The translations under genes and the position numbers were made by a program. Shown in pieces: positions 24,885-43,453 of a DNA stretch of 64,000 nucleotides (position 1 is its first letter; each line of letters starts with the position of its first letter). The notes beneath the pieces were generated by a model. It did no database searches. It was not told where the DNA came from and worked only from the letters and a program-made list of their open reading frames with translations. Source of the DNA: Verrucomicrobiota bacterium (GTDB lineage Bacteria; Verrucomicrobiota; Verrucomicrobiia; Limisphaerales; Fontisphaeraceae); NCBI GenBank assembly GCA_037139415.1, contig JBAXGN010000012.1, positions 1-64,000 of the forward strand, written 5' to 3'.

Positions 24885-25931
24885 TTACCCATTTGCCAAC
24901 TTTCGCCATTGCGCGTTCTGACCGCGTCCGAGGCACTCGACCTTTGAACCGCGAAGGTTCTTCAAGACCTGACGGATCATGTCGAGGCTGACACCCGGAC
25001 ACGCGTGCTGAATGTCGCTGACGCGGAACGGACCGGATTGCGCCTCAATCGCAGCCTGAACCAGACCCGTCTTCGCGCCGCGTGGCGCTTTGACCTGCCC
25101 GGCGCGCTGCTCGAACTCGGCGTAGCCACGGCGGATGACGGCGAGCAGCAAGTTCATCCACGGCGTCAACTCGTGTTTGCCTTCATGCCAGCGATGGGAA
25201 CTGCGGTTGAGGACTTCGTAGTAATCCTCTTTGGACTGCTCGACGAGACGTTCGAGGCTGATGTAACGCCCGACTTCGTAGCCGTGCTGGTAAAGCGCCA
25301 GCAGCGTGAGCAGACGCGAGACGCGACCGTTGCCGTCGCGAAATGGGTGAATGCAGAGAAAGTCGAGAATCAGCGCGGTGATGGCAATGAGCGGCGGAAT
25401 GTTGTCCTGGTCCAGCGCGTGGCGATAGAGCAGGCAGAGTTCATCCACGGCGGCGGGCGTTTGCTTCGCCGAAACGCATTTGAAACGGATGACCGGCGCA
25501 GCGCCAGCCCGGAGTTCGACCACCTCGTTATCAATGCGTTTGAACTGTCCGGCGTCGCCGCTGGCAGACTGGCAAAGTGCGTGGAGGCGTTTAAGGGTTT
25601 CCGGGGTAATGGACATTCTCTCGTGCCGGGTGTGGATTTCGTTCAACGCCAGTCGGTAGCCCTGCACTTCCTGTTCCGAGCGGTCACGCGGCTTGGTGTT
25701 GCCCAGAACCAGCGGACGCAGGCGGTCGGCGGCAACCGTGACACCCTCGATGCGGTTGGAGGATTCGGTGCTTTGGATGAGCGCCATCTCGCGCAGTGCC
25801 TTCAACACTTGCGGCGACTGGCGGGTGTAAAGCTCCTGCCTACCCTTCGCCTCGGCGATGTCATTGAGCAGCCAGGCGGTGCTCATCGGCACGGCGAGGT
25901 CACGCAGACGATGGTTGCGAAAAGAGTTCAT
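24885..25931 (-). CDS. Fic family protein, class II architecture
   Basis: 348 residues. The Fic active site HPFRDGNGR is intact at 195-203, with catalytic His 195. An inhibitory helix motif SNRIEG (58-63) sits N-terminal to the Fic core, placing it in class II, in which a Glu blocks ATP binding until relieved. The C-terminal 60 residues look like a winged helix (FRVSDIQHACPGVSLDMIRQVLKNL). Fic proteins transfer AMP or related groups to target hydroxyls; the target here is unknown. The neighbouring HsdR remnant and RhuM-like gene suggest an accessory or defence locus. Confidence 0.93.
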   Translation of the reverse strand: MNSFRNHRLRDLAVPMSTAWLLNDIAEAKGRQELYTRQSPQVLKALREMALIQSTESSNRIEGVTVAADRLRPLVLGNTKPRDRSEQEVQGYRLALNEIHTRHERMSITPETLKRLHALCQSASGDAGQFKRIDNEVVELRAGAAPVIRFKCVSAKQTPAAVDELCLLYRHALDQDNIPPLIAITALILDFLCIHPFRDGNGRVSRLLTLLALYQHGYEVGRYISLERLVEQSKEDYYEVLNRSSHRWHEGKHELTPWMNLLLAVIRRGYAEFEQRAGQVKAPRGAKTGLVQAAIEAQSGPFRVSDIQHACPGVSLDMIRQVLKNLRGSKVECLGRGQNAQWRKLANG

Positions 25932-26121
25932 GGCTTCGGTTTAATTCGTTTGCCTATACCTCTCCCCTCTGGGGGACATCTGAGGGTGCGTTGCGCTTGT
26001 CCCCACCAAGGTTGACCGGCCTCGACAGCAGACGCGGCAGCAGAAGGTCTCGCGTCCGGAGGAAGAAATGGATTTGGTGTAGAACAGACATTTCAGGTTA
26101 TTTGGTTTAGTGTGGCGGCTT

Positions 26122-27177
26122 TCATCTCATTTCCTTCTTACCGCCCTTGTTCCGTTTGGGTGGCGGCGGGAGTTGTTTGATGGCTTTTTCAAATTCCCCG
26201 TCGGCCGCATCGGCCTGCTGGATGCGCTGGCGGTTGAATTTATCATATTCCGCCTCGGCCAGTTCCCTGGCCATCTCATGGGAGATTTTGCCAGCGTGGG
26301 TGAGTATATTACGGTCGTTGATGGTGAGGAAGCCGTGGAGCTTGGTGATCCAGTCCTTCATGTGCATGGGCACACGGCGCATGGCCTGGCCTTCGGCAAA
26401 GACAAGGTATTGCTCGACGAGGTTGTTCAGGGCGGCCAATTCCGGCTCATTGAGGTAGTTTTTGGCGATGACCACGTCTTCCTTGCGCACCTTCGCGCCG
26501 CGCCAGTTGGTCAGGCCCATGTTGGGCTTGGCGCTGTCGGCGCGGGTATGGATAATCTCCGCCGCTGTCTGGCCAGTGATGGCCCAGTGCATCTTGTTTT
26601 GCACCGTCTGGAAGAACGCAATGCTCTCTGGCTGGGTGGGATCGTAATCAATGCTGGTGGCGTAAATATCGGTAATCTTTTGGTAAAACCGCCGCTCGGA
26701 GGTGCGGATGTCCTGGATGCGCCGGAGCAGTTCGTCGAAGTAATCGAACGGCTGATTGGGATTTTTCAGGCGTTCGTCGTCGAGCACAAAGCCTTTGACA
26801 ATGAATTCTTTGAGCTTTTGCGTAGCCCAGATGCGAAAGCGGGTGGCCACCGCGCTTTTCACCCGGTACCCGACTGAGATAATGGCGTCGAGATTGTAGA
26901 ATTCCACCCGCCGCTGGACGTCCCGGCTCCCTTCCCGGCGAACTAACAAGAAATCCTTGTGAGTTGCGGCGAAATGCAATTCGCCCTCCGCATAGATGTT
27001 CTGCAGGTGCAGGCTGACGTTCTGCTGGGTGGTCTGGAAGAGATCGGCCATGTGGGCTTGGGTCAGCCACGCGGTCTCCCCTTCCAGCCGGACGTCAATT
27101 TTCACCTGTCCGTCTTCCGTGGCATAGACGAGGAACTGTCCCTTTGCCGGTGGGGTGGGTTGTTCCGAATTGCTCAT
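26122..27177 (-). CDS. RhuM-like protein
   Basis: 351 residues. The sequence follows the RhuM family: FLVYATEDGQVKIDVRLEGE, then TAWLTQAHMADLFQTTQQNVSLHLQNIY, a helix-turn-helix-like segment, then RRVEFYNLDAIISVGYRVKS and FRIWATQKLKEFIVKGFVLD. RhuM is named from a Salmonella pathogenicity island gene and is common in restriction and mobile islands across bacteria; its biochemical role is not established. The tail is Pro- and Lys-rich. About 190 bp separate it from the Fic gene. It appears intact. Confidence 0.9.
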   Translation of the reverse strand: MSNSEQPTPPAKGQFLVYATEDGQVKIDVRLEGETAWLTQAHMADLFQTTQQNVSLHLQNIYAEGELHFAATHKDFLLVRREGSRDVQRRVEFYNLDAIISVGYRVKSAVATRFRIWATQKLKEFIVKGFVLDDERLKNPNQPFDYFDELLRRIQDIRTSERRFYQKITDIYATSIDYDPTQPESIAFFQTVQNKMHWAITGQTAAEIIHTRADSAKPNMGLTNWRGAKVRKEDVVIAKNYLNEPELAALNNLVEQYLVFAEGQAMRRVPMHMKDWITKLHGFLTINDRNILTHAGKISHEMARELAEAEYDKFNRQRIQQADAADGEFEKAIKQLPPPPKRNKGGKKEMR

Positions 27178-29193: not shown

Positions 29194-30546
29194 TTACATG
29201 TGGGCAATGATGTTATCGCCGAATTGGGAGCACTTGATTTCGGAAGCGCCTTGCATCTGGCGGGCGAAATCATAGGTCACCTTTTTGCTGACAATCGCGC
29301 CATTGAGGCCCTTGAGAATCAAGTCGGCGGCTTCGTTCCAGCCCAGGTGGCGGAACATCATTTCGCCGGAGAGAATCACCGAACCGGGATTGACGAGGTC
29401 TTTGTTGGCGTACTTGGGAGCGGTGCCGTGCGTGGCTTCAAAGATGGCGTGGCCGGTGACGTAATTAATATTGCCGCCAGGGGCGATGCCAATGCCACCC
29501 ACCTGGGCCGCCAAGGCGTCACTGAGGTAATCACCATTGAGGTTCAGCGTGGCAATCACATCGAAATCATCGGGACGGGTGAGGACCTGCTGCAAGGTGA
29601 TGTCTGCGATGGCGTCCTTGACCAACAGCCGGCCCGAGGCCAACGCCTGCTTTTGCTCTTCGTTGGCGGCGGCTTCACCCTTTTCCTTTTTGGTAATGTC
29701 ATACTGAGCCCAGGTATAAACCCGGTTGCCAAAGAGTTTTTCCGCGGCGGCATACCCCCAATCACGGAAGGCCCCTTCCGTGTATTTCATGATGTTGCCT
29801 TTGTGAACAAAGGTCACACTGCGGCGTTTTTCGCGCAGGGCATATTCGATGGCGGCTTTGACGAGGCGCACGGTGCCCAACTGGGAAACGGCCTTGATGC
29901 CAATGCCGACGCACACTTTGGCATCTCCGCCCGCACCTTCCAGCTTGATGTATTCCTCCGCCTTGGCGGCGGTGCCGAAACGAATCTTGTTGAAATCCTT
30001 CGGAAATTCCTTGGCGATGAAGTCCAGCATCTTCTGGGCTTCCGGCGAACCGCCGACGAATTCAATGCCGGCATAAATATCCTCGGTGTTTTCGCGGAAG
30101 ATGACCATGTTGACCTTCTCCGGATGTTTCACCGGGCTGGGCACGCCGGAAAAATACTGCACGGGGCGCAAACAGACGTAGAGATCGAGCATTTGCCGCA
30201 GCGCGACATTCAGCGAGCGGATGCCGCCGCCCACCGGGGTGGTCAGCGGACCCTTGATCCCGACGAGGTATTCCCGGAACGCCGCAACGGTGTCATCGGG
30301 AAGCCAGTTGTTAAAGCGTTTAAAGGATTCCTCGCCGGCAAAGACTTCAAACCAAGCGATCTTGCGTTTGCCGCCATAGGCCTTTTCCACGGCGGCGTCG
30401 AACACGCGCACGCTGGCCGCCCAAATATCGGCCCCCGTGCCGTCACCGCGAATGAACGGAATGACGGGTTGATCGGGCACGTTGAGTTGTCCGTTAATGA
30501 TACTGATTTTTCCACCCGCAGGCGGAGTAATGTCTTTGTATGCCAT
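29194..30546 (-). CDS. icd: NADP-dependent isocitrate dehydrogenase
   Basis: 450 residues. The dimeric bacterial type is recognised from [32 protein letters not shown] with the substrate/regulatory Ser, [14 protein letters not shown], and the NADP-side [20 protein letters not shown]. The enzyme oxidatively decarboxylates isocitrate to 2-oxoglutarate in the TCA cycle. It is the last gene of the long minus-strand run, 40 bp after dxs. A somewhat longer than usual chain (E. coli 416) is not unusual in this phylum. The Ser of RSLN suggests possible phospho-control, but no kinase/phosphatase gene is nearby. Confidence 0.96.
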
Positions 30547-32599: not shown

Positions 32600-32884
32600 T
32601 CAGTCCCCCGAGGGGTTTTCCGCCAGCACGACCGGCTTGAGCTGCAATTCTCCGGCGGCATTCTGCTCCAGTTGTTTGATTTTCAACTCCGCGTCGGCCA
32701 GCGTGCGCTGGCACGATTGCGCCAGGCGCACCCCTTCCTCGTAGCGGGCGACCAAACTCTCCAACGGCAAATCTTCCGCTTCCATCGCCTCAACGATGGT
32801 CTCCAGACGCCGCAGCGCCTCTTCATACGGAAGTTGATCCGGAGCCAACTTCGCGGTGTCGTTGTTTTTAGCAGGTTTCGACAT
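32600..32884 (-). CDS. xseB: Exodeoxyribonuclease VII small subunit
   Basis: 94 residues. Typical XseB sequence: LPYEEALRRLETIVEAMEAE followed by DLPLESLVARYEEGVRLAQS, a two-helix protein that binds the large subunit XseA. Together they degrade single-stranded DNA. xseA is not in the window. It lies 24 bp upstream of dxs, as in many bacteria, and 54 bp after the FAD oxidoreductase. Confidence 0.93.
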   Translation of the reverse strand: MSKPAKNNDTAKLAPDQLPYEEALRRLETIVEAMEAEDLPLESLVARYEEGVRLAQSCQRTLADAELKIKQLEQNAAGELQLKPVVLAENPSGD

Positions 32885-32938: not shown

Positions 32939-35200
32939 TTATTCCCCGATCCAAACCCAACGCACCCCATCAATGGCCACCCGTCCGTCGGTGTTGCCAT
33001 TGGTGACTTCCACAAAGCCGCTGTCGCCCGCCTGCCACTGAAACTCGCCCAAGGAGTTGAAATTGAATGGCGTGGTTTCCTTGCGTTGATCCACCGTTAA
33101 TTTTTTGGAGCCACTGCCGCAACGAACCAGAACGGGCACATTGGTGGCCTGATTGCGTGCCGTACGAAAGCCGAGGCAGACTTCATAGCGTCCGGAGCGA
33201 GGTATTGCCGGTTGGAACCGTGCGCGTGCCGGAGCCTTTTTCCCTTTGTAAACCACGTCGTAATTGACGCCCGGGCCGAAGAAAACATCCGGCAGACGTT
33301 GGCCGGGCCCGAGGATGATTTCCGGGTACGCCGCATTCCAGCGGCCAAACAGTTCCGCGTCAAAGTCGTCCATCGTCAGGTCACGCGCAGTGGCCAACCC
33401 CACCGGCACCTCTGCTGGGATCAGGCGGCGGTTGCCAGCAGCGTCTTCCACCAGCAGGCTCACACTATACACTTTATCGAGGGTGAACCGGTGTTCCACC
33501 TGGTTCCCTTGAGCAGAGACGGTTCCATTGCCGGCGAAATCCCACCAGACGCGCTTGAGCGCTTCTTTCAGCACTCCCGTCTGCACGGAAAATTTCACCA
33601 ATTCACCCACTTTGGGATGAGCCGGGGTCCACACGATGGTTACGGGTGGCTGATAGTTGGAATCCAGGATCGCCTGTTCTTGGCGCAACAGTTCGCGCAA
33701 TTGTTCCACGGGCACAGCTTGCACGGTGGTTTTTCCAACGATGGACAGGTGGGCCGCGTCACCGGCAGCATGGCCGAGCATCATGAACACCGGCTCCATC
33801 CGCAATGAACAATAGGCCACATGGGTGGCGGAGAGGCATACCGGCACCAACAGGTTGCCTGGTTCAAACGGGGTGAGACTCGCATAAGGGATGGCGTAAT
33901 TATGCACCGCCACATGGCGAGTATGGTCCAGATCGAGCTTCCCGTCATGCATCAGGTATTGGATCGTGTGGCAATCCACCCCGTAACTGCCGGCGCAGAT
34001 GCCGTCCGGCTTGAAGCGGTCCTGAGTGAGATCGTTCTCGCGCAGCACATACCGACCGACCATGCGACGCGCCTCGCGCACATATAGCTGAAACGGAAAG
34101 TGACCGTTATCGGCAAACTCATCTTTGGACAATCCCCAGGTGCGGGTTGCCGTGCGAAAGGCTTCCGGCAAATCCTCGCCATTTTGCAGATAATAAAGCC
34201 GACTGAGAAAATAGTCCCGCTCGCGTGCGGCGAGGCGCGCGCGGGTTTCCCAACTGCCCTCGGCATAGCCCTCGCTGTTGCCGGGAAAATCACACCAATT
34301 GGCGTCATAGGTTCCATTGGGCCCGGCTTTTTCGACGGTCGTGAAGAAACTGCCAAAACCGGTGGCGGTGCCTTTCCGGGCGCGCTCGCCGTCAGTTCGG
34401 CGAAACGGCTCTGGATCGTAATTCTCCGGTTTCGGAAACAATACGCGGTTGGCGGTGTTGGAGGTGACACAGACGCGATAATTGTAGGCCATCGTGCGAT
34501 GATCCCCCAAGCCGCGCAACTCCCTGGGGCCGGCGCTAATACCGGCAAGGTATTCGCCAAACTCCGCGCGGCTCTCGCGCCCGACCCGGCACGGCACATG
34601 CGCGCCAGCCATCAGATCCCCCTCATAACTGGCATCTACAAACACATCCCCATTGAACGTGCGCGTGACATTGGAGCCGGTCTGGCCGGGAATTTCTGCC
34701 ACCAATGCAGTAATGCGCCCTGCGTCATGTTCGACGGCCCGGTACCGGTGATTCCGCCAGAGCGTCACTTTGCCTGTTTCCTTGAGCATCTGTTCAAACA
34801 CCAGTTCGGCCACATGCGGTTCAAAGATGATTCCATCCCGGCAGGCCTTGAACTGCGGGGAAGTGGTGCCGTACTTGTCTCCGTAGTACTTCCCCACTCG
34901 CTTGAAGAATTCATCCGCCAAGCCGCCGACCGTTTTGCGGTCGCCAATGTCCGTGGACACCAAGCCGCCGCTGACGACGCCGCCGACGTGCTGGTTGATA
35001 TCCACCAGCGCGACCGTATGCCCGTGCCGGGCGGCGGCCACAGCGGTCATCACCCCACCAGGGGTGCCGCCATACACGATTACTTCCGCGCGCACCGCAG
35101 CACCATCAATCTGGTTGGAGGCAGCCGGAAACACCGGACGACCCGCAAATAAAAATGCGGCAGCAACTATTCCATGAAAATGGATAACTTTGAGTTTCAT
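32939..35200 (-). CDS. Exported FAD-dependent oxidoreductase with PKD-like and golvesin-like C-terminal domains
   Basis: 753 residues. A signal peptide precedes the nucleotide-binding fold VIVYGGTPGGVMTAVAAARH. The FAD-dependent domain runs to about residue 530 (including GGVVSGGLVSTDIGD and GDVFVDASYEGDLMAGA). Then come a PKD-like beta domain (VWWDFAGNGTVSAQGN, then VYSVSLLVEDAAGN) and a C-terminal golvesin-like domain (SGRYEVCLGFRTARNQATN, then AIDGVRWVWIG). Many PVC genomes hold this family, usually taken to act on carbohydrates; the substrate is unknown. The ATG overlaps the jetD stop as ATGA, so translation is coupled to the Wadjet operon. Confidence 0.88.
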   Translation of the reverse strand: MKLKVIHFHGIVAAAFLFAGRPVFPAASNQIDGAAVRAEVIVYGGTPGGVMTAVAAARHGHTVALVDINQHVGGVVSGGLVSTDIGDRKTVGGLADEFFKRVGKYYGDKYGTTSPQFKACRDGIIFEPHVAELVFEQMLKETGKVTLWRNHRYRAVEHDAGRITALVAEIPGQTGSNVTRTFNGDVFVDASYEGDLMAGAHVPCRVGRESRAEFGEYLAGISAGPRELRGLGDHRTMAYNYRVCVTSNTANRVLFPKPENYDPEPFRRTDGERARKGTATGFGSFFTTVEKAGPNGTYDANWCDFPGNSEGYAEGSWETRARLAARERDYFLSRLYYLQNGEDLPEAFRTATRTWGLSKDEFADNGHFPFQLYVREARRMVGRYVLRENDLTQDRFKPDGICAGSYGVDCHTIQYLMHDGKLDLDHTRHVAVHNYAIPYASLTPFEPGNLLVPVCLSATHVAYCSLRMEPVFMMLGHAAGDAAHLSIVGKTTVQAVPVEQLRELLRQEQAILDSNYQPPVTIVWTPAHPKVGELVKFSVQTGVLKEALKRVWWDFAGNGTVSAQGNQVEHRFTLDKVYSVSLLVEDAAGNRRLIPAEVPVGLATARDLTMDDFDAELFGRWNAAYPEIILGPGQRLPDVFFGPGVNYDVVYKGKKAPARARFQPAIPRSGRYEVCLGFRTARNQATNVPVLVRCGSGSKKLTVDQRKETTPFNFNSLGEFQWQAGDSGFVEVTNGNTDGRVAIDGVRWVWIGE

Positions 35201-36432
35201 ATCAATTCACGAAGGTGGACTTCGGCGACCGCGTAAAACGGAAACTGCGCCAATACTGGCCGGCCTAAACTTTCCTGTTCAAAAGCGCCCTTGTGTCCGG
35301 CAGCGAGCATGGCTTCAAGTTCCACCCGCTCTGGACCAAGGGAATCACTTTTTATCATCTTTTGGAGCTTGCGAAGATCGTCCGGCAGCAACTTTGGTCC
35401 ACACGGTTCAGCGCGGAAACGCATGTGCAGACTGCGAAACGGTTTCCCCGTGATGGTCCGCAACTGATTCAAGATGGCAAACCCATCGGCATCGGCATCA
35501 CCAAAGTGCCAATATTCCAAGACGTCCGGCAGACGTTGCAGCAAGGCCCGGGTGCCGGAACCCGGATAGCTGGTTTGAATGAGCAGGTCGCCACACTGCA
35601 ACTTGGCCAATTCGTGGAAGGACGTTTCGTTTTCGATGGTGATGCATCGGCGAGCGTTGATTTCGACGAGTGCCGCCGCTTCAATGTCCATCTGCGAAAT
35701 CCGGGACGCGCCACGCAACCGGCCCAAGTCCAGCCACTGCCCACGCAAATCCAGACGCAAGGGGCCATGCAATAAAACAGTCCGGGGATTTTCGACCAAG
35801 CCCAAATCATCCAGGGAAGCGATCTCCCCGTGACTTAGTTGCTGCAAGGCCGCGGCCAAACGTCCGGATAATTGTTCAAGGCGTTTCGAGTCCTGGCACA
35901 ACACACAACTGGCAAACCGCAGTAACGATTCTCCCGGCCATGCCAGAAGTTTGGGCAGCAACTCCAATAACTCGGCATTGCCGGCAGGGTCATCGCAGGA
36001 AAACGGGGTAGTGACCGTTCCTTGCAACGCAGCGAGTTCGTATTCCCGGCAAAAGGTCTGCCAGCGCTCACGCCACGGCTCCGGCACAGCGGCATACCGG
36101 GCCAGCGCAAATTGCCGGGAAAATTCCTGGCGGCGATGGGTCGGCGATAGCAGGCCAAGCAACGTGAACAAGGCCGCCTCCTGAGCCAGCGGCAGGCGAA
36201 TGCGTTCGATCAACTCACGGTCGCGTCGATGCCGTTCCACCTGGATCACCCCCTTGCGCTCGGCCATTTCAAGATCGCACACCGCTTGAACCCGCGCCTC
36301 GCCATCCTCACATCCCGCCAAGCGCAACAGCGCGCGAAAGTCCATCAGCCAATCGCGATCCACTGCCCCGGTGCGTCCGGCTTTGGAGCGGGTATATTGA
36401 GCAACCAGGGTCTGCAATACCGGAGAGTACAT
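35197..36432 (-). CDS. jetD: Wadjet nuclease subunit JetD (Toprim)
   Basis: 411 residues. The C-terminal Toprim fold shows the catalytic Glu in ITIENETSF (about 267) and the acidic DADAD (312-316), matching the DUF2220-type JetD/MksG subunit that cuts DNA in Wadjet. The N-terminal half corresponds to the DUF3322-like arm and hinge part. In the family JetD is recruited by the JetABC loop extruder to cleave circular plasmid DNA. It lies 21 bp downstream of jetC, and its stop overlaps the start of the FAD oxidoreductase. Confidence 0.9.
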   Translation of the reverse strand: MYSPVLQTLVAQYTRSKAGRTGAVDRDWLMDFRALLRLAGCEDGEARVQAVCDLEMAERKGVIQVERHRRDRELIERIRLPLAQEAALFTLLGLLSPTHRRQEFSRQFALARYAAVPEPWRERWQTFCREYELAALQGTVTTPFSCDDPAGNAELLELLPKLLAWPGESLLRFASCVLCQDSKRLEQLSGRLAAALQQLSHGEIASLDDLGLVENPRTVLLHGPLRLDLRGQWLDLGRLRGASRISQMDIEAAALVEINARRCITIENETSFHELAKLQCGDLLIQTSYPGSGTRALLQRLPDVLEYWHFGDADADGFAILNQLRTITGKPFRSLHMRFRAEPCGPKLLPDDLRKLQKMIKSDSLGPERVELEAMLAAGHKGAFEQESLGRPVLAQFPFYAVAEVHLRELI

Positions 36433-36453
36433 GGGGCGGAATCCTCGCTGGGG

Positions 36454-39400
36454 TTATCCGTGTTTCTCCATCCATTCGCGGCCCTCGGGCGTGCTTCGCA
36501 GGATGCTGACCGGCACATTGCGAATGCGCGTCTTTGCGCCGATCCGCTCCTCATGTTTGGAGACGATGATCAATTGGTCGCACTGACTGAACGCAAACGG
36601 AATGTTGCCCGCCGACATGGATAACACGCCTTGCAGGTCCAACTGTTTGAGGGCACGCACGCAATCCTCGATCCGCTCCGGGGAGAGTTTGGAGAAGGCT
36701 TCGTCAATGGGCACCACCGCCAGCGCCGGATCATGCCAACGCGTCTCATGCCGGTGGTACGCGCGCAGGTAGCTGGCTAGAATGGCGACGAAGTACGGCG
36801 ATTGATTCTCGCCACCGCTGAACTTGCCGCTCTGCCGGTCCACGCTGACCGCGCGTGCTTGTGGGTCGCGCGCATCCCAGACCAGTAGGTCGTAATCCAA
36901 GTAATGCCGATAATCAAGCAGCCTCGCCGCCTCCTCGCTATCCGGATGCTCAACCAGCACGGAGAGGAAATGGTCCAGCGCCGCCCGAAGCTCCCCGTTC
37001 ACCGATGCATAAAACAGATCATCCTCGCGGCAGGTGGCGTTCAAGCTGATCAAGTCACGATACATCTTGAAATCCGGATTGGGCTGAGAATCAATTTCAT
37101 AACGATCATTACCAATTGGAGATTTCAGGTGACTATTGAGTAGCCGAATATGATCGCGCACATCCCGCAAGGCGCGATCCAACTTGGATAACACCTGCGT
37201 GCGGAAAAGATTCTCCCACTGTATGCGTGCTGCCTCGGATTTAGCCTGATAATCCGGGATATTGGCGGCGGCAATTTGTTCCCTTAACTTCTCCCAGGGT
37301 TGGTTGACTGGATTCTCCGGCACCAGTTCCTCGTATTTGCGATAGGCGTGAGCTAGTTCATGGCGGGTGGCCACTACTTTTTGCCATTCCTCGGCAATGG
37401 TAACGCGCGCGTCGTTCTCCATAGTGACCAAACGCTTTGCTGCGGCATCCAGCGCCGGTATCTCCGTCAGCACCTGCTGCCGCAGCTCATGGATGCGGGA
37501 GGCGTAGATGGAAATATCCCCCGAGTCCGCCTTAATGCGGTCGAACGCGCGGATGGAGAATTCCAGGTCCGCGCGTAGCTCTGCCAGCGACTGTTCGCCA
37601 TCTTCGATTTTGCCCTTCTTCTGACTCTGCAACAGTATGCGCCGTTCCTGCTCCCATTGGCGCGATTCTTCTTCCTTGCGGGAGAGGTCCCGCTCCCGCT
37701 CCTCAAAGCTGGCGCGGTTGATGCGGTTTAACTGCTCCAGGTTCCCCTTGAGTTCCGCTTCCAGCTTGGGCAACTGCTGTGCTTCGATGAGATCGCGGGT
37801 AAGCGAGTTGTGCTCGGGAATCAACTCAGCAGCGCGCCGACTGATGCGCTCTGTTTCCTCCACCCGCGGGCGCAACTGGCGCTCCTCGGCCTCCAGTGGT
37901 GCTAGCAGCATGCGTTTAACCTCAAGCTGCTTTTGCAGCCCCGTGCGGCCAATGAACGGAAGATTATCGTAATGGCGGCGGCGCTCGACAAACGAACCCA
38001 CGGACATAAAACCATCCGGCAGGATGGCCTTGTCGTGCTTAGCCATATCCTCGGGACGCTCCACACAGATCACCTCGCCAAAAAGCTGGCTGATAATCGC
38101 CCGTGCCACCGGGTGTTCCGTCTTGATTTTCTCCGCCAGAGAACCCGGCTGGATGGTCCGCGCTTTGGCCTTGCGCGAATTAATGAGGGATTCCTGCGGT
38201 GAATCGGCCCGCAATTCCTGATACAGCTTCAGCGCCCGCTCGAAATTCCCCTCGCTCACCACCACCGCAAATTTGCGCGTGAAGACCACTTCGATGGCGG
38301 GCCGCCATTTCTCATCCGTGATCTCGCACAATTTGCACAGCGGCTGCGCGGCGGGCGCGCGCCCCTCCGGGGGCAACGCTTCGTTCAACGCGGATAACAA
38401 TTTGGCGGGATACGGCAAATGCCCAAGCTGCAAGGCGGCGACCTCATCCCGCAAAGCGCCCGCTTCCGCGCGCACTTCCTCCAGCCGTCCGCGCAAGGGG
38501 CGGATGCCGCTACTGAGCGCAATTTTTAACCGTTCCACTTCCACCGCCAAGTCCGCGAGTGCGATTTCACTGCGGCTGGACTCACAGCTTTCCAGATTCT
38601 TGATGGCAGTCTCAAAGGCGGTGATGTCCAACGCCTCCGGCAGCGGAGCGCCTTCAACTTCTTCCAGCCACGCCCGGGCATTCCGCACCCGCTGGCGCAA
38701 GGCTTCATCCAGGCGATTCCCCACGCCACGCAACTGATCGATCTTACTGACTAAACCCGGATTCTTTGACTTCAAGTAAAGATAGAGTTGGCCTTCGCTA
38801 GTCTGGGAAATCATAGCCTGGAGCTGTGTCAATTGCTCTTTACGTTTCCCAATAAAATCATCCAACTCGCCTATGCGTGCCTCGTCTTTGGCAAACGCAT
38901 CTTTGAGTTCGGCGAGTTGCTTTTCACCCTCCCTCACCAGATTAGCAGAATGGGTCTGCGATACTTCTCCAGAAAGCCAGCGGCATACCGCCCGATCGCG
39001 TACTGCTGCCTGGTGTTTCAAAAAATGATTACCGATCGCGGTGAGCCGATCCAACTGATCACGCAACTCCCGTAGATCCCGCTCGTAGGCCTGGAAGTTC
39101 CTATAACTGGCAATGACGTCGGAAACATTCAGCTTATCCCCCGGCAGGATGAAGCGGCGGCAGAATTCATCGAAACTCTTGAGGTTGTTGAAGGACATTG
39201 CCGACGGCAGTAGAACAGAAAGCACGCCGCGATTAAAATTCAAATGCGCCGGATTGGACATGTCGCGCAGGTACTGCTCCTGCGTTTCAAAGACGTGGCC
39301 GTCATGCTGCTTCTCGATCAAATGCCGGAAGGCCGACATTTCCAGCGGCCGCCGCTCCGCATCCAGAAAGTCCTTGCGCTCCAGCGCGCTATCACAAAAG

Positions 39401-39795
39401 AACGGGGCGATGCGTCCCTGATTTTCAGCGGCGTTACGAAACTCCAGGCGCAGTCCCCAGGTTTCGACGCGGTTGCCATCCGGCCAGGTGAATTCAAGCG
39501 CCACATAGGTGATGGCACCCCGTTCACGGACGTATTGCGGCTGCCCGTTCTCCTCGCGCTTGGTATCGCAGAGCGCATAGCTTTTCAGCGTGCGGCTTCC
39601 GGGGGCTCCAGTGGCAGAACGGTTAAATAAAGCGCGATCACTCCCAACCAGCACGAGCTGGATCAGGTCCATCAAGACGCTCTTGCCCGAACCGGTGACG
39701 CCAGCCAGCAGGAGATGGCCATCCACGGCGAGCGAGTCATTGTATCCATACCAGTTGATGGCGTGAATATGGGTCAATTTAATGGCGCGACTCAT
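36454..39795 (-). CDS. jetC: Wadjet SMC-like ATPase JetC
   Basis: 1113 residues. ABC/SMC-type ATPase with Walker A GVTGSGKS at 32-39, long coiled coils (about 250-900), the signature SGGEN at 993-997 and Walker B VVPIDEAF with catalytic Glu at about 1032. The length and arrangement match the MksB/JetC motor that extrudes DNA loops. The start overlaps the stop of jetB by 4 bp. All ATPase residues are present, so the system looks active. It resembles MukB/MksB but is assigned to Wadjet because jetD follows. Confidence 0.93.
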   Translation of the reverse strand: MSRAIKLTHIHAINWYGYNDSLAVDGHLLLAGVTGSGKSVLMDLIQLVLVGSDRALFNRSATGAPGSRTLKSYALCDTKREENGQPQYVRERGAITYVALEFTWPDGNRVETWGLRLEFRNAAENQGRIAPFFCDSALERKDFLDAERRPLEMSAFRHLIEKQHDGHVFETQEQYLRDMSNPAHLNFNRGVLSVLLPSAMSFNNLKSFDEFCRRFILPGDKLNVSDVIASYRNFQAYERDLRELRDQLDRLTAIGNHFLKHQAAVRDRAVCRWLSGEVSQTHSANLVREGEKQLAELKDAFAKDEARIGELDDFIGKRKEQLTQLQAMISQTSEGQLYLYLKSKNPGLVSKIDQLRGVGNRLDEALRQRVRNARAWLEEVEGAPLPEALDITAFETAIKNLESCESSRSEIALADLAVEVERLKIALSSGIRPLRGRLEEVRAEAGALRDEVAALQLGHLPYPAKLLSALNEALPPEGRAPAAQPLCKLCEITDEKWRPAIEVVFTRKFAVVVSEGNFERALKLYQELRADSPQESLINSRKAKARTIQPGSLAEKIKTEHPVARAIISQLFGEVICVERPEDMAKHDKAILPDGFMSVGSFVERRRHYDNLPFIGRTGLQKQLEVKRMLLAPLEAEERQLRPRVEETERISRRAAELIPEHNSLTRDLIEAQQLPKLEAELKGNLEQLNRINRASFEERERDLSRKEEESRQWEQERRILLQSQKKGKIEDGEQSLAELRADLEFSIRAFDRIKADSGDISIYASRIHELRQQVLTEIPALDAAAKRLVTMENDARVTIAEEWQKVVATRHELAHAYRKYEELVPENPVNQPWEKLREQIAAANIPDYQAKSEAARIQWENLFRTQVLSKLDRALRDVRDHIRLLNSHLKSPIGNDRYEIDSQPNPDFKMYRDLISLNATCREDDLFYASVNGELRAALDHFLSVLVEHPDSEEAARLLDYRHYLDYDLLVWDARDPQARAVSVDRQSGKFSGGENQSPYFVAILASYLRAYHRHETRWHDPALAVVPIDEAFSKLSPERIEDCVRALKQLDLQGVLSMSAGNIPFAFSQCDQLIIVSKHEERIGAKTRIRNVPVSILRSTPEGREWMEKHG

Positions 39796-40460
39796 ACGGT
39801 TTGACCTCCCAGCTCAGGGGCTGCCGGCTCATTGGAGACCTCCTCGGCCTCGGCATTTGGGCGTTTGTGCAAATCTGCCGTACGAGTCCAATCCGCAAAA
39901 TTCTGGAAGGGAATAATCCGCTTGAGGGTGGGCAACACTTCAATGCGCGATTGCTCAAACGGAGCGGCGACTTCAAAACGAATGAGGTTGAAGCGTTGCG
40001 CCTGCCGCAAAATCTCCACCAACCGGCCACGGCTGGGCGGCTCCTTGAGGTCAGGCAACAATTTTTCCTGCAACAACTGGTTCAATTGCTCGACGGTCAA
40101 AAAAACTTCGGTGGCGCCCTGCTCGCGGATCTGCGTGTCACACTCATACCACAGCGCCAGCAAAACGATGGTGGCATCCTGGCGCAGCCGCAGGGTCAAC
40201 GCCGGCTTTTGCGGCACCGCCTGAATCAACCGATTTTCGTGTTCATTCACCACCTGCAAACCGGAGAGCGCGGCCAGTTCACGCAGCCATTCGAGGTTTT
40301 GCCGGCACCAGTTGTAAAGTTCGGATTGGCCCGGTTCCAGCCCGAGAATGGAGCCACGGGCCAGCAAGGCCTGCAACGCCTCGCCCATGCGCACGCGATC
40401 CGGTTCATTGAGACGGGCCAGCAGTGGCGTCGGGGCGGGTTGATTCAAATCAGCACTCAT
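39792..40460 (-). CDS. jetB: Wadjet kite subunit JetB
   Basis: 222 residues. A winged-helix protein of DUF4194/MksE type: LTLRLRQDATIVLLALWYEC, then TVEQLNQLLQEKLLPDLKEP and GRLVEILRQAQRFNLIRFE. In the complex it pairs with JetA to bridge the motor heads and DNA. It overlaps both jetA (4 bp) and jetC (4 bp), typical of fixed-stoichiometry complexes. Confidence 0.88.
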   Translation of the reverse strand: MSADLNQPAPTPLLARLNEPDRVRMGEALQALLARGSILGLEPGQSELYNWCRQNLEWLRELAALSGLQVVNEHENRLIQAVPQKPALTLRLRQDATIVLLALWYECDTQIREQGATEVFLTVEQLNQLLQEKLLPDLKEPPSRGRLVEILRQAQRFNLIRFEVAAPFEQSRIEVLPTLKRIIPFQNFADWTRTADLHKRPNAEAEEVSNEPAAPELGGQTV

Positions 40461-41944
40461 TTCTTAATGACAAAAAATCGTTCAATCGCGCACGCGGCAT
40501 GGCGGTCGTGTTCCGCCTGCTCAGCGTCATTCACAACGCGCGGCACTTCCACCCGATAGCGCGCCTCGGCGGATTCCGCGTGCAACAACAGCGCGATGAC
40601 GTCCGCCAGGTCGTCCTCATTGCCCATCGGGAAATCCAAGCTGGCGATGCGCGCCCCCTTGCCACCTGGCAAACGGGAAACGAAATGATTTGCCCGCGCC
40701 ACATTCAGGGAATCACGCAACGCATTCTCCATCTGGCGGCGGGTGCGCTCGCGCAGCGATTCATCCACGTCTCCCTCCACCGGCGCGTTTTCTTCCAGAG
40801 TACGACGGCGGGGCGGTTCATACAGGGAGTCGCGACCAGCGAGCAGCCGCGCCTCGGGCAGCAGCAATTGTGGCAACGCGGGCGAGTCCTCCAGTTCGTT
40901 GTAGCGATGACCGGCAAAGGCCTGATTGAGTTTCTCGAACAATTCCTTGATCTGGCCGCGCCGTTCGCCCACAACCTCCTGTAAATACCGGAACCGGGCG
41001 AGCGACCGCCGCGTAAATTCCGCGGTGCGCGCGTCAATGCGATCCGCCATCGGCGCAACGCTATCCAAGGCGCGCTCCAAATCGTCCAACTGATTGCGCA
41101 CCCGTGCCATGGCGGCGCTGGCATCCAGACTGGGATTGCGGCGCATCACTTCGGCCTGCATTTTGTGCAGCAGATCAGCGTCTTCCAACAGCGCCTCCAG
41201 GCGATCCCGCGCATCACTCAACCGATTGTGCAATTGTGAGCGCACCAATTCCGCGTAACAGGTATGCCCGAATTGTTCGGCGTATTGATCAAAGACAATA
41301 TTCAGGTTGTCGCCAAGCGTTTGCGCCTCGAGTTGCCGACGGATGAACCGCTCGACGCTCTTGCGCATGGCTCGCAGTTCCGCGAGGCCTTGCTGGGCGC
41401 TGTCGCGCGAGGCCTGAATATGTTCCCACGGTTGTTTGACCAGTTCAGCCTGGTTCGCTAACGCCGCACACACGCCAACCAATTTATCCGTGAACACGGC
41501 CGCGTCCGGATACGCGATCTTGCGAATGCCCGCCAATAAGGTAGCGCCATGGGGATCGAAATACACCGTGCGCCGCCAGTCAGCGGCGGTTTCCATCTCC
41601 AACCAGCCAGCGCGGATCAGATGGTCCAAAACGTAGCGAGCCTTTTCCCGGACCGGTAGCGAAACCGTCGCCTCCGGTGGCAATTCGGCGGTGGCTTCAA
41701 TTTGGAAATCCGGGTGATTCGCCAGCACGCGCATGACCATCGCCAAGGCTTCTTCCCGGGCCATGCCCTCATTGCAGCACGACGCCTCCGTCTCCAACGC
41801 ATTCAGAATATCCAGATACACTCCCGCATTCGCCCCGCTCAGCACCCGGAAGAAATCCGGGCGCACCTCGCGGAACAGTTCTGCGGCAAGCGATGCTGTC
41901 CGGCCCTGCCCACCATCCTGGGTAACGAGTGCCATGGAATCCAA
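40457..41944 (-). CDS. jetA: Wadjet kleisin subunit JetA
   Basis: 495 residues. N-terminal winged-helix-like region (SLAAELFREVRPDFFRVLSG, then YLDILNALETEA), followed by helical bundles and a C-terminal segment resembling MksF/JetA kleisins. The recognisable parts suggest the DUF5716-like JetA group rather than DUF3375; the exact Wadjet type would need a profile search. It starts 19 bp after the sugar isomerase-like gene and overlaps jetB by 4 bp. The identification is strengthened by the conserved jetABCD order. Confidence 0.85.
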   Translation of the reverse strand: MDSMALVTQDGGQGRTASLAAELFREVRPDFFRVLSGANAGVYLDILNALETEASCCNEGMAREEALAMVMRVLANHPDFQIEATAELPPEATVSLPVREKARYVLDHLIRAGWLEMETAADWRRTVYFDPHGATLLAGIRKIAYPDAAVFTDKLVGVCAALANQAELVKQPWEHIQASRDSAQQGLAELRAMRKSVERFIRRQLEAQTLGDNLNIVFDQYAEQFGHTCYAELVRSQLHNRLSDARDRLEALLEDADLLHKMQAEVMRRNPSLDASAAMARVRNQLDDLERALDSVAPMADRIDARTAEFTRRSLARFRYLQEVVGERRGQIKELFEKLNQAFAGHRYNELEDSPALPQLLLPEARLLAGRDSLYEPPRRRTLEENAPVEGDVDESLRERTRRQMENALRDSLNVARANHFVSRLPGGKGARIASLDFPMGNEDDLADVIALLLHAESAEARYRVEVPRVVNDAEQAEHDRHAACAIERFFVIKK

Positions 41945-41963: not shown

Positions 41964-42848
41964 TCAAGCGGCATGCAGACCATCGTACCGGATATCCAAA
42001 TCCGCCAGCGTCAAACGCAACCAAGCCAGTGAATCCTCAATCATAGGGCCACCCATGCCTTCGCACTCGATGCTCAGATTACCATTAAACTTATGGTCGC
42101 GCAGCAATTTGAGGCATTCCCGGATGTTATCCGCATTGACCCCACCGCCCAACGGACATTGGCTGACCGCGATGCCCGTTTGCCCACCCCGCACGGCACG
42201 CGCCAAAGACTCTGAGACATCTTTGACATGCACGTGGCTCACCTTGGTGATGAACCGCTTCAAGAACGCCACCGGATCCTGTCCGGCGATAAACGTGTTG
42301 CCGGTATCCATATTCAGGCGCAGCAGCGAACTATCCACAAACGCCAGCATCTCCGCCATGCGCTCGGGTTTGGTGGTGAAATAGCCGTGCGGCTCGATGT
42401 TGACAATGATATTATGCGCCTCCGCCACCCGCAGAATCAACTGATAGCTTTTCTTCATCTGGGCCATGGCGTCCACTTCGCTGATGCCATCCGGTTTGTG
42501 CAACCCATCCGTGGTGTCCACGCAGGGGCACCCAATCTGCGCCGCCCAAGCGATGGATTTCATCACGTACGGCACGCCGCGCAACGGACCGTCCTCGTTG
42601 GAAAGCGGATAGGCGGCATCCACCTGGGAGAACCGCACCCCAAACGTCTCCATTTTTTGCCGGAGCAAAGCTGGATCCTCATACAGGGCGACGTGCGGTT
42701 GGTACCCCAGCCCGTGAATCCAGCTCACCCCGTCAATCAAACCACATTCGATCTGATGCACCCCGTTGCGTTGCGCCCATTGCAGGCATTTCTCAAACGA
42801 CCAGTATGCGGAGTTAAACGCATCTGTATGGAAACCAATCGTCATCAT
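41964..42848 (-). CDS. Sugar phosphate isomerase/epimerase family TIM barrel
   Basis: 294 residues, xylose-isomerase-like TIM barrel (AP endonuclease 2 superfamily). Metal-binding residues are suggested by NIEPHGYFTTKPERM (Glu), LNMDTGNTFIAG (Asp), VSHVHVKDV (His) and the final SIECEGMGG (Glu). Family members isomerise or epimerise sugars or inositol derivatives. The substrate is unknown. It sits 19 bp from both the Rieske gene upstream and jetA downstream, so it appears to be in the same transcript. Confidence 0.88.
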   Translation of the reverse strand: MMTIGFHTDAFNSAYWSFEKCLQWAQRNGVHQIECGLIDGVSWIHGLGYQPHVALYEDPALLRQKMETFGVRFSQVDAAYPLSNEDGPLRGVPYVMKSIAWAAQIGCPCVDTTDGLHKPDGISEVDAMAQMKKSYQLILRVAEAHNIIVNIEPHGYFTTKPERMAEMLAFVDSSLLRLNMDTGNTFIAGQDPVAFLKRFITKVSHVHVKDVSESLARAVRGGQTGIAVSQCPLGGGVNADNIRECLKLLRDHKFNGNLSIECEGMGGPMIEDSLAWLRLTLADLDIRYDGLHAA

Positions 42849-42867: not shown

Positions 42868-43398
42868 TTACTGAACCGCGAGATAACTGCGTTTGTCGTT
42901 CCACTCGTTCTGCGGAAATTCCTGGTTGGGATTCACCAACACATGCCCCTGATCGTTCAGCGCGATGGCGAAACGCGGCAAGCCGCGCTTTACCGGGCCG
43001 CCCGTCGGCACGCCACCAGGCGTGAACACCGCATCGTGACCAGTGCATACAATCCGGTTGGCATTGCGCGAATCGCGCACGAGAAAGTTGCCCTTGTGGG
43101 GACAGGTGGCAATCGTGGCAAAGAGACGTCCTTGATACCGGATGACAAAAAAGTTGCGATCCACAAACTTCTCCGAAATACCATCCTTGGCGTACTCTTT
43201 GAGAAGTCCGACATCTACCGGCTTGCCAATGCCGGCAAAGGCGCGGGAAGCGCCGCCGGTGCCACAAAACAGACAACCGGAAGTGACGACCACAAACTTC
43301 CGCCGACTCATCGCCGGTTTGGCATCGCGTAGCTGCGGTGTCAGCCCCCCGGCTTGAATGGGGCCAGAACTTTCAGAGTTGTTATCCATACTGGTCAT
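42868..43398 (-). CDS. Tat-exported Rieske [2Fe-2S] protein
   Basis: 176 residues. A twin-arginine motif (SRRKFVVVTSG) starts at about residue 31; a shorter start near it is possible. The cluster ligands are CPHKG (C-x-H) and CTGHDA (C-x2-H), the standard Rieske pattern. The protein is likely periplasmic and passes electrons to an unidentified partner. It begins the tight run that continues into the sugar isomerase-like gene and the Wadjet genes. Confidence 0.9.
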   Translation of the reverse strand: MTSMDNNSESSGPIQAGGLTPQLRDAKPAMSRRKFVVVTSGCLFCGTGGASRAFAGIGKPVDVGLLKEYAKDGISEKFVDRNFFVIRYQGRLFATIATCPHKGNFLVRDSRNANRIVCTGHDAVFTPGGVPTGGPVKRGLPRFAIALNDQGHVLVNPNQEFPQNEWNDKRSYLAVQ

Positions 43399-43453
43399 AC
43401 GAAAAGACTATGCCGACCAACAGTGATGTCAAACGGGAATTCAAGCTCATGGC

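What the first reader, a model, noticed from the sequence alone, without database searches (positions are those of the whole stretch)
35197..41944. Complete Wadjet system locked into a housekeeping transcript
jetA, jetB, jetC and jetD are intact and all overlap or lie 21 bp apart. What is unusual is the neighbourhood. A Rieske protein and a TIM-barrel isomerase precede jetA with 19-bp gaps. The FAD oxidoreductase after jetD starts inside the jetD stop (ATGA), and xseB, dxs and icd then follow on the same strand with gaps of 24-54 bp. Defence operons usually sit in islands with their own promoters; here ten codirectional genes could be one transcription unit.
Basis: partly seen in the sequence, partly recalled or inferred. 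Interest (0 to 1): 0.65.

Follow-up and report, generated by a model that had tools for sequence, protein, structure and literature searches.

The report
Anti-plasmid Wadjet genes in crowded operon
A complete and ordinary type I Wadjet anti-plasmid system sits, with almost no gaps, inside a long same-direction gene run that ends in core metabolic genes; this order occurs in no relative examined, so it looks like a one-off insertion that may now be read from a neighbour's promoter rather than a new kind of system.

Summary
jetA-jetB-jetC-jetD (minus strand, 41944-35197) are intact and match PADLOC type I models. Rieske and TIM-barrel genes precede them with 19-28 bp gaps; the FAD gene starts in the jetD stop (ATGA); xseB, dxs and icd follow. 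In ~0.5 Mb of this genome the run is the longest with gaps of 55 bp or less. Only xseB-dxs-icd are housekeeping (xseB-dxs adjacent in 22/22 loci fetched); Rieske, TIM and FAD are patchy accessory genes. No other jet locus shares any flanking gene of the window. Both same-family relatives lack jetC and have an ExbB-ExbD-TonB-like cluster before xseB, which here lies on another contig. The JetC tree crosses families and includes an Acidobacteria MAG, so the module moves horizontally; composition is now host-like. jetA elsewhere usually has a 100-500 bp leader; the window is one of three tight cases in 28. The only promoter-like site above background at the head of the run is before Rieske. Co-transcription is plausible but untested. 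By-product: in another Verrucomicrobiota genus, Wadjet lies right behind gyrA in 7 genomes, from two Wadjet lineages in opposite orientations.

The parts
40457..41944 (-). jetA, kleisin-like subunit (495 aa; start TTG 41944 or ATG 41935)
   Evidence: PF18982 E 1.5e-47; PADLOC JetA1 E 6e-39
39792..40460 (-). jetB, KITE/MukE-like subunit (222 aa), 4-bp overlaps on both sides
   Evidence: PF13835 E 4.6e-17; PADLOC JetB1
36454..39795 (-). jetC, SMC-like ATPase (1113 aa) with Walker A GVTGSGKS, signature FSGGENQ, Walker B VVPIDEAF intact
   Evidence: PADLOC JetC1 E 1.4e-157; motifs; profile hits solved JetC 8dk1_C E 9.9e-18
35197..36432 (-). jetD, Toprim nuclease (411 aa); E267 and D312/D314 invariant in 17 JetDs
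   Evidence: PF09983; PADLOC JetD1 E 3.4e-41; profile aligns these residues to the Toprim of Topo VI A, 2zbk, E 5e-4
42868..43398 (-). Rieske [2Fe-2S] protein, accessory, first gene of the presumed unit
   Evidence: PF00355; patchy, at most 35% identity in the order
41964..42848 (-). AP_endonuc_2 / xylose-isomerase-like TIM barrel, accessory
   Evidence: PF01261 E 9e-28; close copies in scattered genomes; none of the 20 loci fetched has jet, Rieske or FAD beside it
32939..35200 (-). FAD-dependent oxidoreductase with PKD and Golvesin_C domains, probably secreted, accessory; ATG overlaps the jetD stop
   Evidence: PF12831, PF18911, PF25275; closest relatives in other families and other settings; homologues share an N-terminal signal-peptide-like stretch
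32600..32884 (-). xseB, exonuclease VII small subunit
   Evidence: TIGR01280
30587..32575 (-). dxs
   Evidence: TIGR00204; adjacent to xseB in 22/22 dxs loci
29194..30546 (-). icd, NADP isocitrate dehydrogenase
   Evidence: TIGR00183 / NF005425; downstream of dxs in 10 of 22 fetched dxs loci, including both same-family genomes
43405..43432 (-). candidate sigma-70-like promoter TTGACA-16-TAGTCT, 6 bp before the Rieske ATG
   Evidence: 98.5th percentile of the sense-coding null; the only junction from Rieske to FAD above the 95th. Consensus match only.

Best explanation
A standard type I Wadjet (JetABC loop-extruding SMC complex plus JetD Toprim nuclease, expected to cut small circular DNA such as plasmids) was acquired horizontally as a compact four-gene cassette. 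Together with other accessory genes (Rieske, TIM, FAD) it accumulated upstream of the conserved xseB-dxs(-icd) unit in this lineage. Having no leader of its own here, it is probably transcribed by read-through from an upstream promoter, most likely the one ahead of Rieske, which could make its expression constitutive. No functional link to isoprenoid synthesis or the TCA cycle is implied. Shown: gene content, type, intact catalytic motifs, uniqueness of the order among loci examined, patchy distribution. Inferred: horizontal gain, read-through, plasmid restriction.
For: Type I models for all four genes and intact motifs. jetABCD is the only constant block in 29 other jet loci; the flanks are unrelated to the window's. 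JetC is present in 39/196 genomes of the order (this one included) and absent from the only two other same-family genomes held. In the JetC tree members of families f35 and f9 fall in different clades, an Acidobacteria MAG falls inside the window's larger clade, and very similar copies occur in different families (L043 and L044); three loci carry a tyrosine-integrase-family gene about 225 bp upstream of jetA. In the same-family genomes xseB-dxs-icd is preceded by an ExbB-ExbD-TonB-like-zinc-ribbon cluster, which in this genome sits on contig C160. GC and codon usage of all run genes are host-like. Gaps are tight at both ends, against a median 227-bp leader elsewhere; the only strong promoter-like site at the run's head precedes Rieske.
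Against: No empty site (Rieske-TIM-FAD-xseB without jet) was found, so insertion as one event is not shown. The promoter model is generic sigma-70 with low power in this genome, and Shine-Dalgarno sites are rare, so start sites are uncertain. No terminator is seen even after icd, so lack of terminators says little. Host-like composition would also fit long vertical residence.
Confidence: 0.65

Rival explanations
1. jetABCD has its own promoter inside the 3' end of TIM and is regulated on its own; close packing is incidental, as in other compact genomes.
For: 31% of codirectional gaps in this genome are 30 bp or less, so tightness alone does not prove an operon. A TTGATT-18-CATAAT match lies within TIM at 42440-42411. 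Most jet loci elsewhere have a leader of 100-500 bp, 8 of 27 with promoter-like scores at or above the 95th percentile.
Against: The 120 bp before jetA score at the 85.5th percentile of coding background; promoter-like sites in the region are fewer than in shuffles (3 against 6.9).
Confidence: 0.27
2. A selected functional link: Wadjet tied to a metabolic or redox operon (Rieske, TIM, FAD, dxs, icd) so that defence follows growth state.
For: Translational-coupling-style overlap jetD-FAD and the longest close-packed codirectional run in the sampled genome.
Against: The order is in none of the 29 other jet, 22 dxs, 20 TIM and 3 outside FAD loci examined; selected links are usually conserved.
Confidence: 0.05
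3. Assembly artefact: chimeric contig joining a jet island to the xseB-dxs locus.
For: Draft genome of 378 contigs.
Against: Reading frames overlap across the jetD-FAD joint; composition is uniform over all genes; the genome has a single jetD/jetC locus and one full-length dxs.
Confidence: 0.03

Closest known systems
Wadjet type I (JetABCD / MksBEFG / EptABCD)
   Same: All four genes, order A-B-C-D, 4-bp overlaps, SMC ATPase motifs, Toprim E and DxD; hits type I models and, by profile, the solved JetC 8dk1 and the Topo VI A Toprim. PMC10586767 describes the same composition.
   Different: Only the genomic setting: tightly flanked on both sides by codirectional non-defence genes.
Wadjet behind gyrA in G411, G599, G607 (found here)
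   Same: Type I-like jetABCD downstream of a core gene on the same strand; 20 bp after gyrA in L111
   Different: There a recurrent site within one genus; here a single case with no recurrence found.
Integrase-linked jet loci L042, L043, L101
   Same: Same jetABCD block, related JetC
   Different: Island-like: integrase-family gene about 225 bp upstream, so a leader before jetA.

Membership tests
Wadjet type I | JetA, JetB, JetC, JetD together in one operon in that order | tested here: met
Wadjet type I | best models are type I rather than II or III | tested here: met
   best hits JetA1, JetB1, JetC1 (E 1e-157 against 2e-10 for JetC2), JetD1
Wadjet type I | JetC SMC-like ATPase with Walker A, signature and Walker B | tested here: met
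   one search hit to JetC 8dk1_C
Wadjet type I | JetD Toprim nuclease with catalytic acidic residues | tested here: met
   E267, D312, D314 invariant, aligned to the Topo VI A Toprim
Wadjet type I | restriction of small circular plasmids in vivo | not testable with these tools
   needs a transformation assay
Operon with housekeeping genes | codirectional genes with short gaps | tested here: met
Operon with housekeeping genes | single transcript across all junctions | not testable with these tools
   no RNA data; promoter scan suggestive only
Operon with housekeeping genes | conserved linkage in relatives | tested here: not met
   only xseB-dxs (and partly icd) conserved
Defence island | other defence or mobile genes adjacent | tested here: not met
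   direct neighbours are metabolic or RNA-modification genes; Fic and RhuM-family genes lie only beyond icd, at 24.9-27.2 kb

The most novel reading that the evidence does not exclude
In Verrucomicrobiota, Wadjet cassettes repeatedly settle without a leader right behind core or metabolic genes (gyrA in one genus; the Rieske-TIM head of an xseB-dxs-icd run here) and use their promoters, giving always-on plasmid defence. The gyrA 3' side would be a preferred site.
Probability: 0.25. Interest if true: 0.55.

Novelty: new member of a known kind. Interest (0 to 1): 0.32.

Why it matters
It gives a concrete, testable case of a defence system that may be driven by a neighbouring gene's promoter instead of sitting in an island. 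The comparison also turned up a recurrent Wadjet site behind gyrA, used by two Wadjet lineages in opposite orientations, which bears on how plasmid defence is kept and expressed.

Tried and rejected
Conserved Rieske-TIM-jet-FAD synteny: searched in 196 genomes of the order for jetC, FAD, dxs, TIM and Rieske, and in 388 of the phylum for jetC; not found in the loci fetched (with 23, 26, 38). Recent foreign DNA by composition: rejected, all run genes within 1 sd in GC and GC3. Leaderless -10 motif TAGTCT shared by Rieske and xseB: tested over about 320 starts, not enriched. Flanking direct repeats as insertion scars: only weak matches of chance type. Single-sequence searches of the PDB with JetD or JetC gave nothing useful; profiles were needed. 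One gene-caller script and one Pfam call failed on errors of mine and were redone.

Full report
Observation. Pfam, PADLOC and NCBIfam identify them, with all four Jet proteins best matched by type I models. JetC has intact Walker A, signature and Walker B motifs, and a profile of 11 relatives hits the solved JetC 8dk1. JetD has invariant E267, D312 and D314, which a profile aligns to the Toprim of topoisomerase VI A. jetA may start at TTG 41944 or ATG 41935; Shine-Dalgarno sites are rare in this genome (7-16% of genes), so this stays open.

Is the packing unusual? I called genes with a simple codon-usage caller over about 0.5 Mb of the same genome (346 genes). Thirty per cent of adjacent pairs are codirectional with gaps of 55 bp or less. 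The truA-to-icd run in the window is the longest; the next longest has five genes. The caller printed it as 8 + 4 genes because it placed the FAD start at GTG 35134. I take ATG 35200, which adds a signal-peptide-like stretch as in the FAD relatives and makes one run of 12. All run genes have host-like GC and GC3, within 1 sd, so the jet genes are not recent foreign DNA by composition.

Relatives. JetC occurs in 39 of 196 genomes of the order (this one included), about half of the others at 44-69% identity and the rest near 30%, and not in the two other genomes of the same family. In 29 further jet loci taken with flanks, jetABCD is the only constant block, and none of the window's flanking genes recurs. 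The gap upstream of jetA has a median of 227 bp, and only two of 27 loci have a codirectional gene within 30 bp. xseB lies next to dxs in all 22 dxs loci fetched, with icd downstream in 10 of them. TIM relatives at 63-80% identity lie in 20 fetched loci without jet, Rieske or FAD. The nearest FAD relatives lie in other families. The Rieske protein has nothing above 35% in the order. Thus three of the six non-jet genes are accessory.

History. The same-family genomes carry a four-gene cluster, by sequence reading ExbB-ExbD-TonB-like-zinc ribbon, right before xseB-dxs-icd. This genome has the same four genes (69, 43, 35 and 64% identity) on contig C160, followed by a gene that reads as MtnA. The stretch before xseB has therefore been rearranged between these lineages; which state is older is not settled, because the more distant dxs loci show yet other genes there. 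The JetC tree groups the window with families f35 and f12, puts other f35 and f9 members elsewhere, and places an Acidobacteria MAG within the larger clade: horizontal movement. Three related loci have a tyrosine-integrase-family gene about 225 bp before jetA.

Expression. A sigma-70 weight-matrix scan, calibrated on sense-coding stretches, puts one junction from Rieske through FAD above the 95th percentile: the 55-bp gap before Rieske, TTGACA-16-TAGTCT (98.5th). jetA is at 85.5, FAD 70, xseB 61. A site before dxs, inside xseB, reaches 97. Only 31% of genes with gaps over 120 bp pass the same cut-off, so the test is weak; the matrix frequencies are approximate E. coli values from my own knowledge. 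Elsewhere 8 of 27 jetA leaders pass, and neither of the two tight ones does. No minus-strand terminator-like site falls in a junction of the run, but none falls after icd either. Read-through from the Rieske promoter is the most likely reading and remains unproven.

By-product. In genus g144 of another family of the class, a Wadjet lies right behind gyrA: codirectional in G411 (20 bp after gyrA), G599 and G607; convergent and from the distant Wadjet lineage in G590, G602, G615 and G601. Relatives G616 and G439 have gyrA followed at once by the gene (ThiF-like by sequence reading) that lies beyond the jet block of G411, so the block looks like a clean insertion there. That is 7 of the 21 jet-bearing genomes of the genus for which both gyrA and jetC positions were in hand, not all independent: the JetC tree allows as few as two or three arrivals. 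A paper search for Wadjet with gyrase, gyrA and operon gave five papers; only titles and abstract openings were seen, and none of those describes this.

Verdict. A true but ordinary type I Wadjet in an unusually crowded, unconserved place. The claim of one housekeeping transcript is reasonable only for the tail and needs RNA evidence. The score reflects a known system with a mildly surprising setting, and a better lead at gyrA.

Noticed in passing
L111, L135, L147 (codirectional); L143, L148, L149, L150 (convergent): In genus g144 Wadjet operons of two lineages lie directly downstream of gyrA in 7 genomes; G616 (L140) and G439 (L144) show the jet-less junction gyrA-ThiF-like. Apparent Wadjet hotspot.
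   Followed up: partly
window 24885-27177, minus strand: Fic/DOC family gene next to a Virulence_RhuM family gene (PF13310, E 1e-114), beyond icd on the same strand.
   Followed up: no
L042, L043, L101: A conserved 358-aa gene (PF00589 integrase in L042, homologues in the others) about 225 bp upstream of jetA in three genomes.
   Followed up: partly
L037:9964-11229 and L051:14933-16225: A 421-430 aa protein family (no Pfam match for the L037 copy) near jetA in two distant jet loci; 25 bp upstream and codirectional in L037.
   Followed up: no
L106:6467-9901 (G000 contig C160): ExbB-ExbD-TonB-like-zinc ribbon cluster followed 6 bp later by an MtnA-like gene; in same-family genomes the cluster is followed by xseB-dxs-icd instead.
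   Followed up: yes
window 32939-35200: Probably secreted FAD oxidoreductase with PKD and Golvesin_C domains; relatives at 67-68% in two other families, once as a tandem pair (L054).
   Followed up: partly
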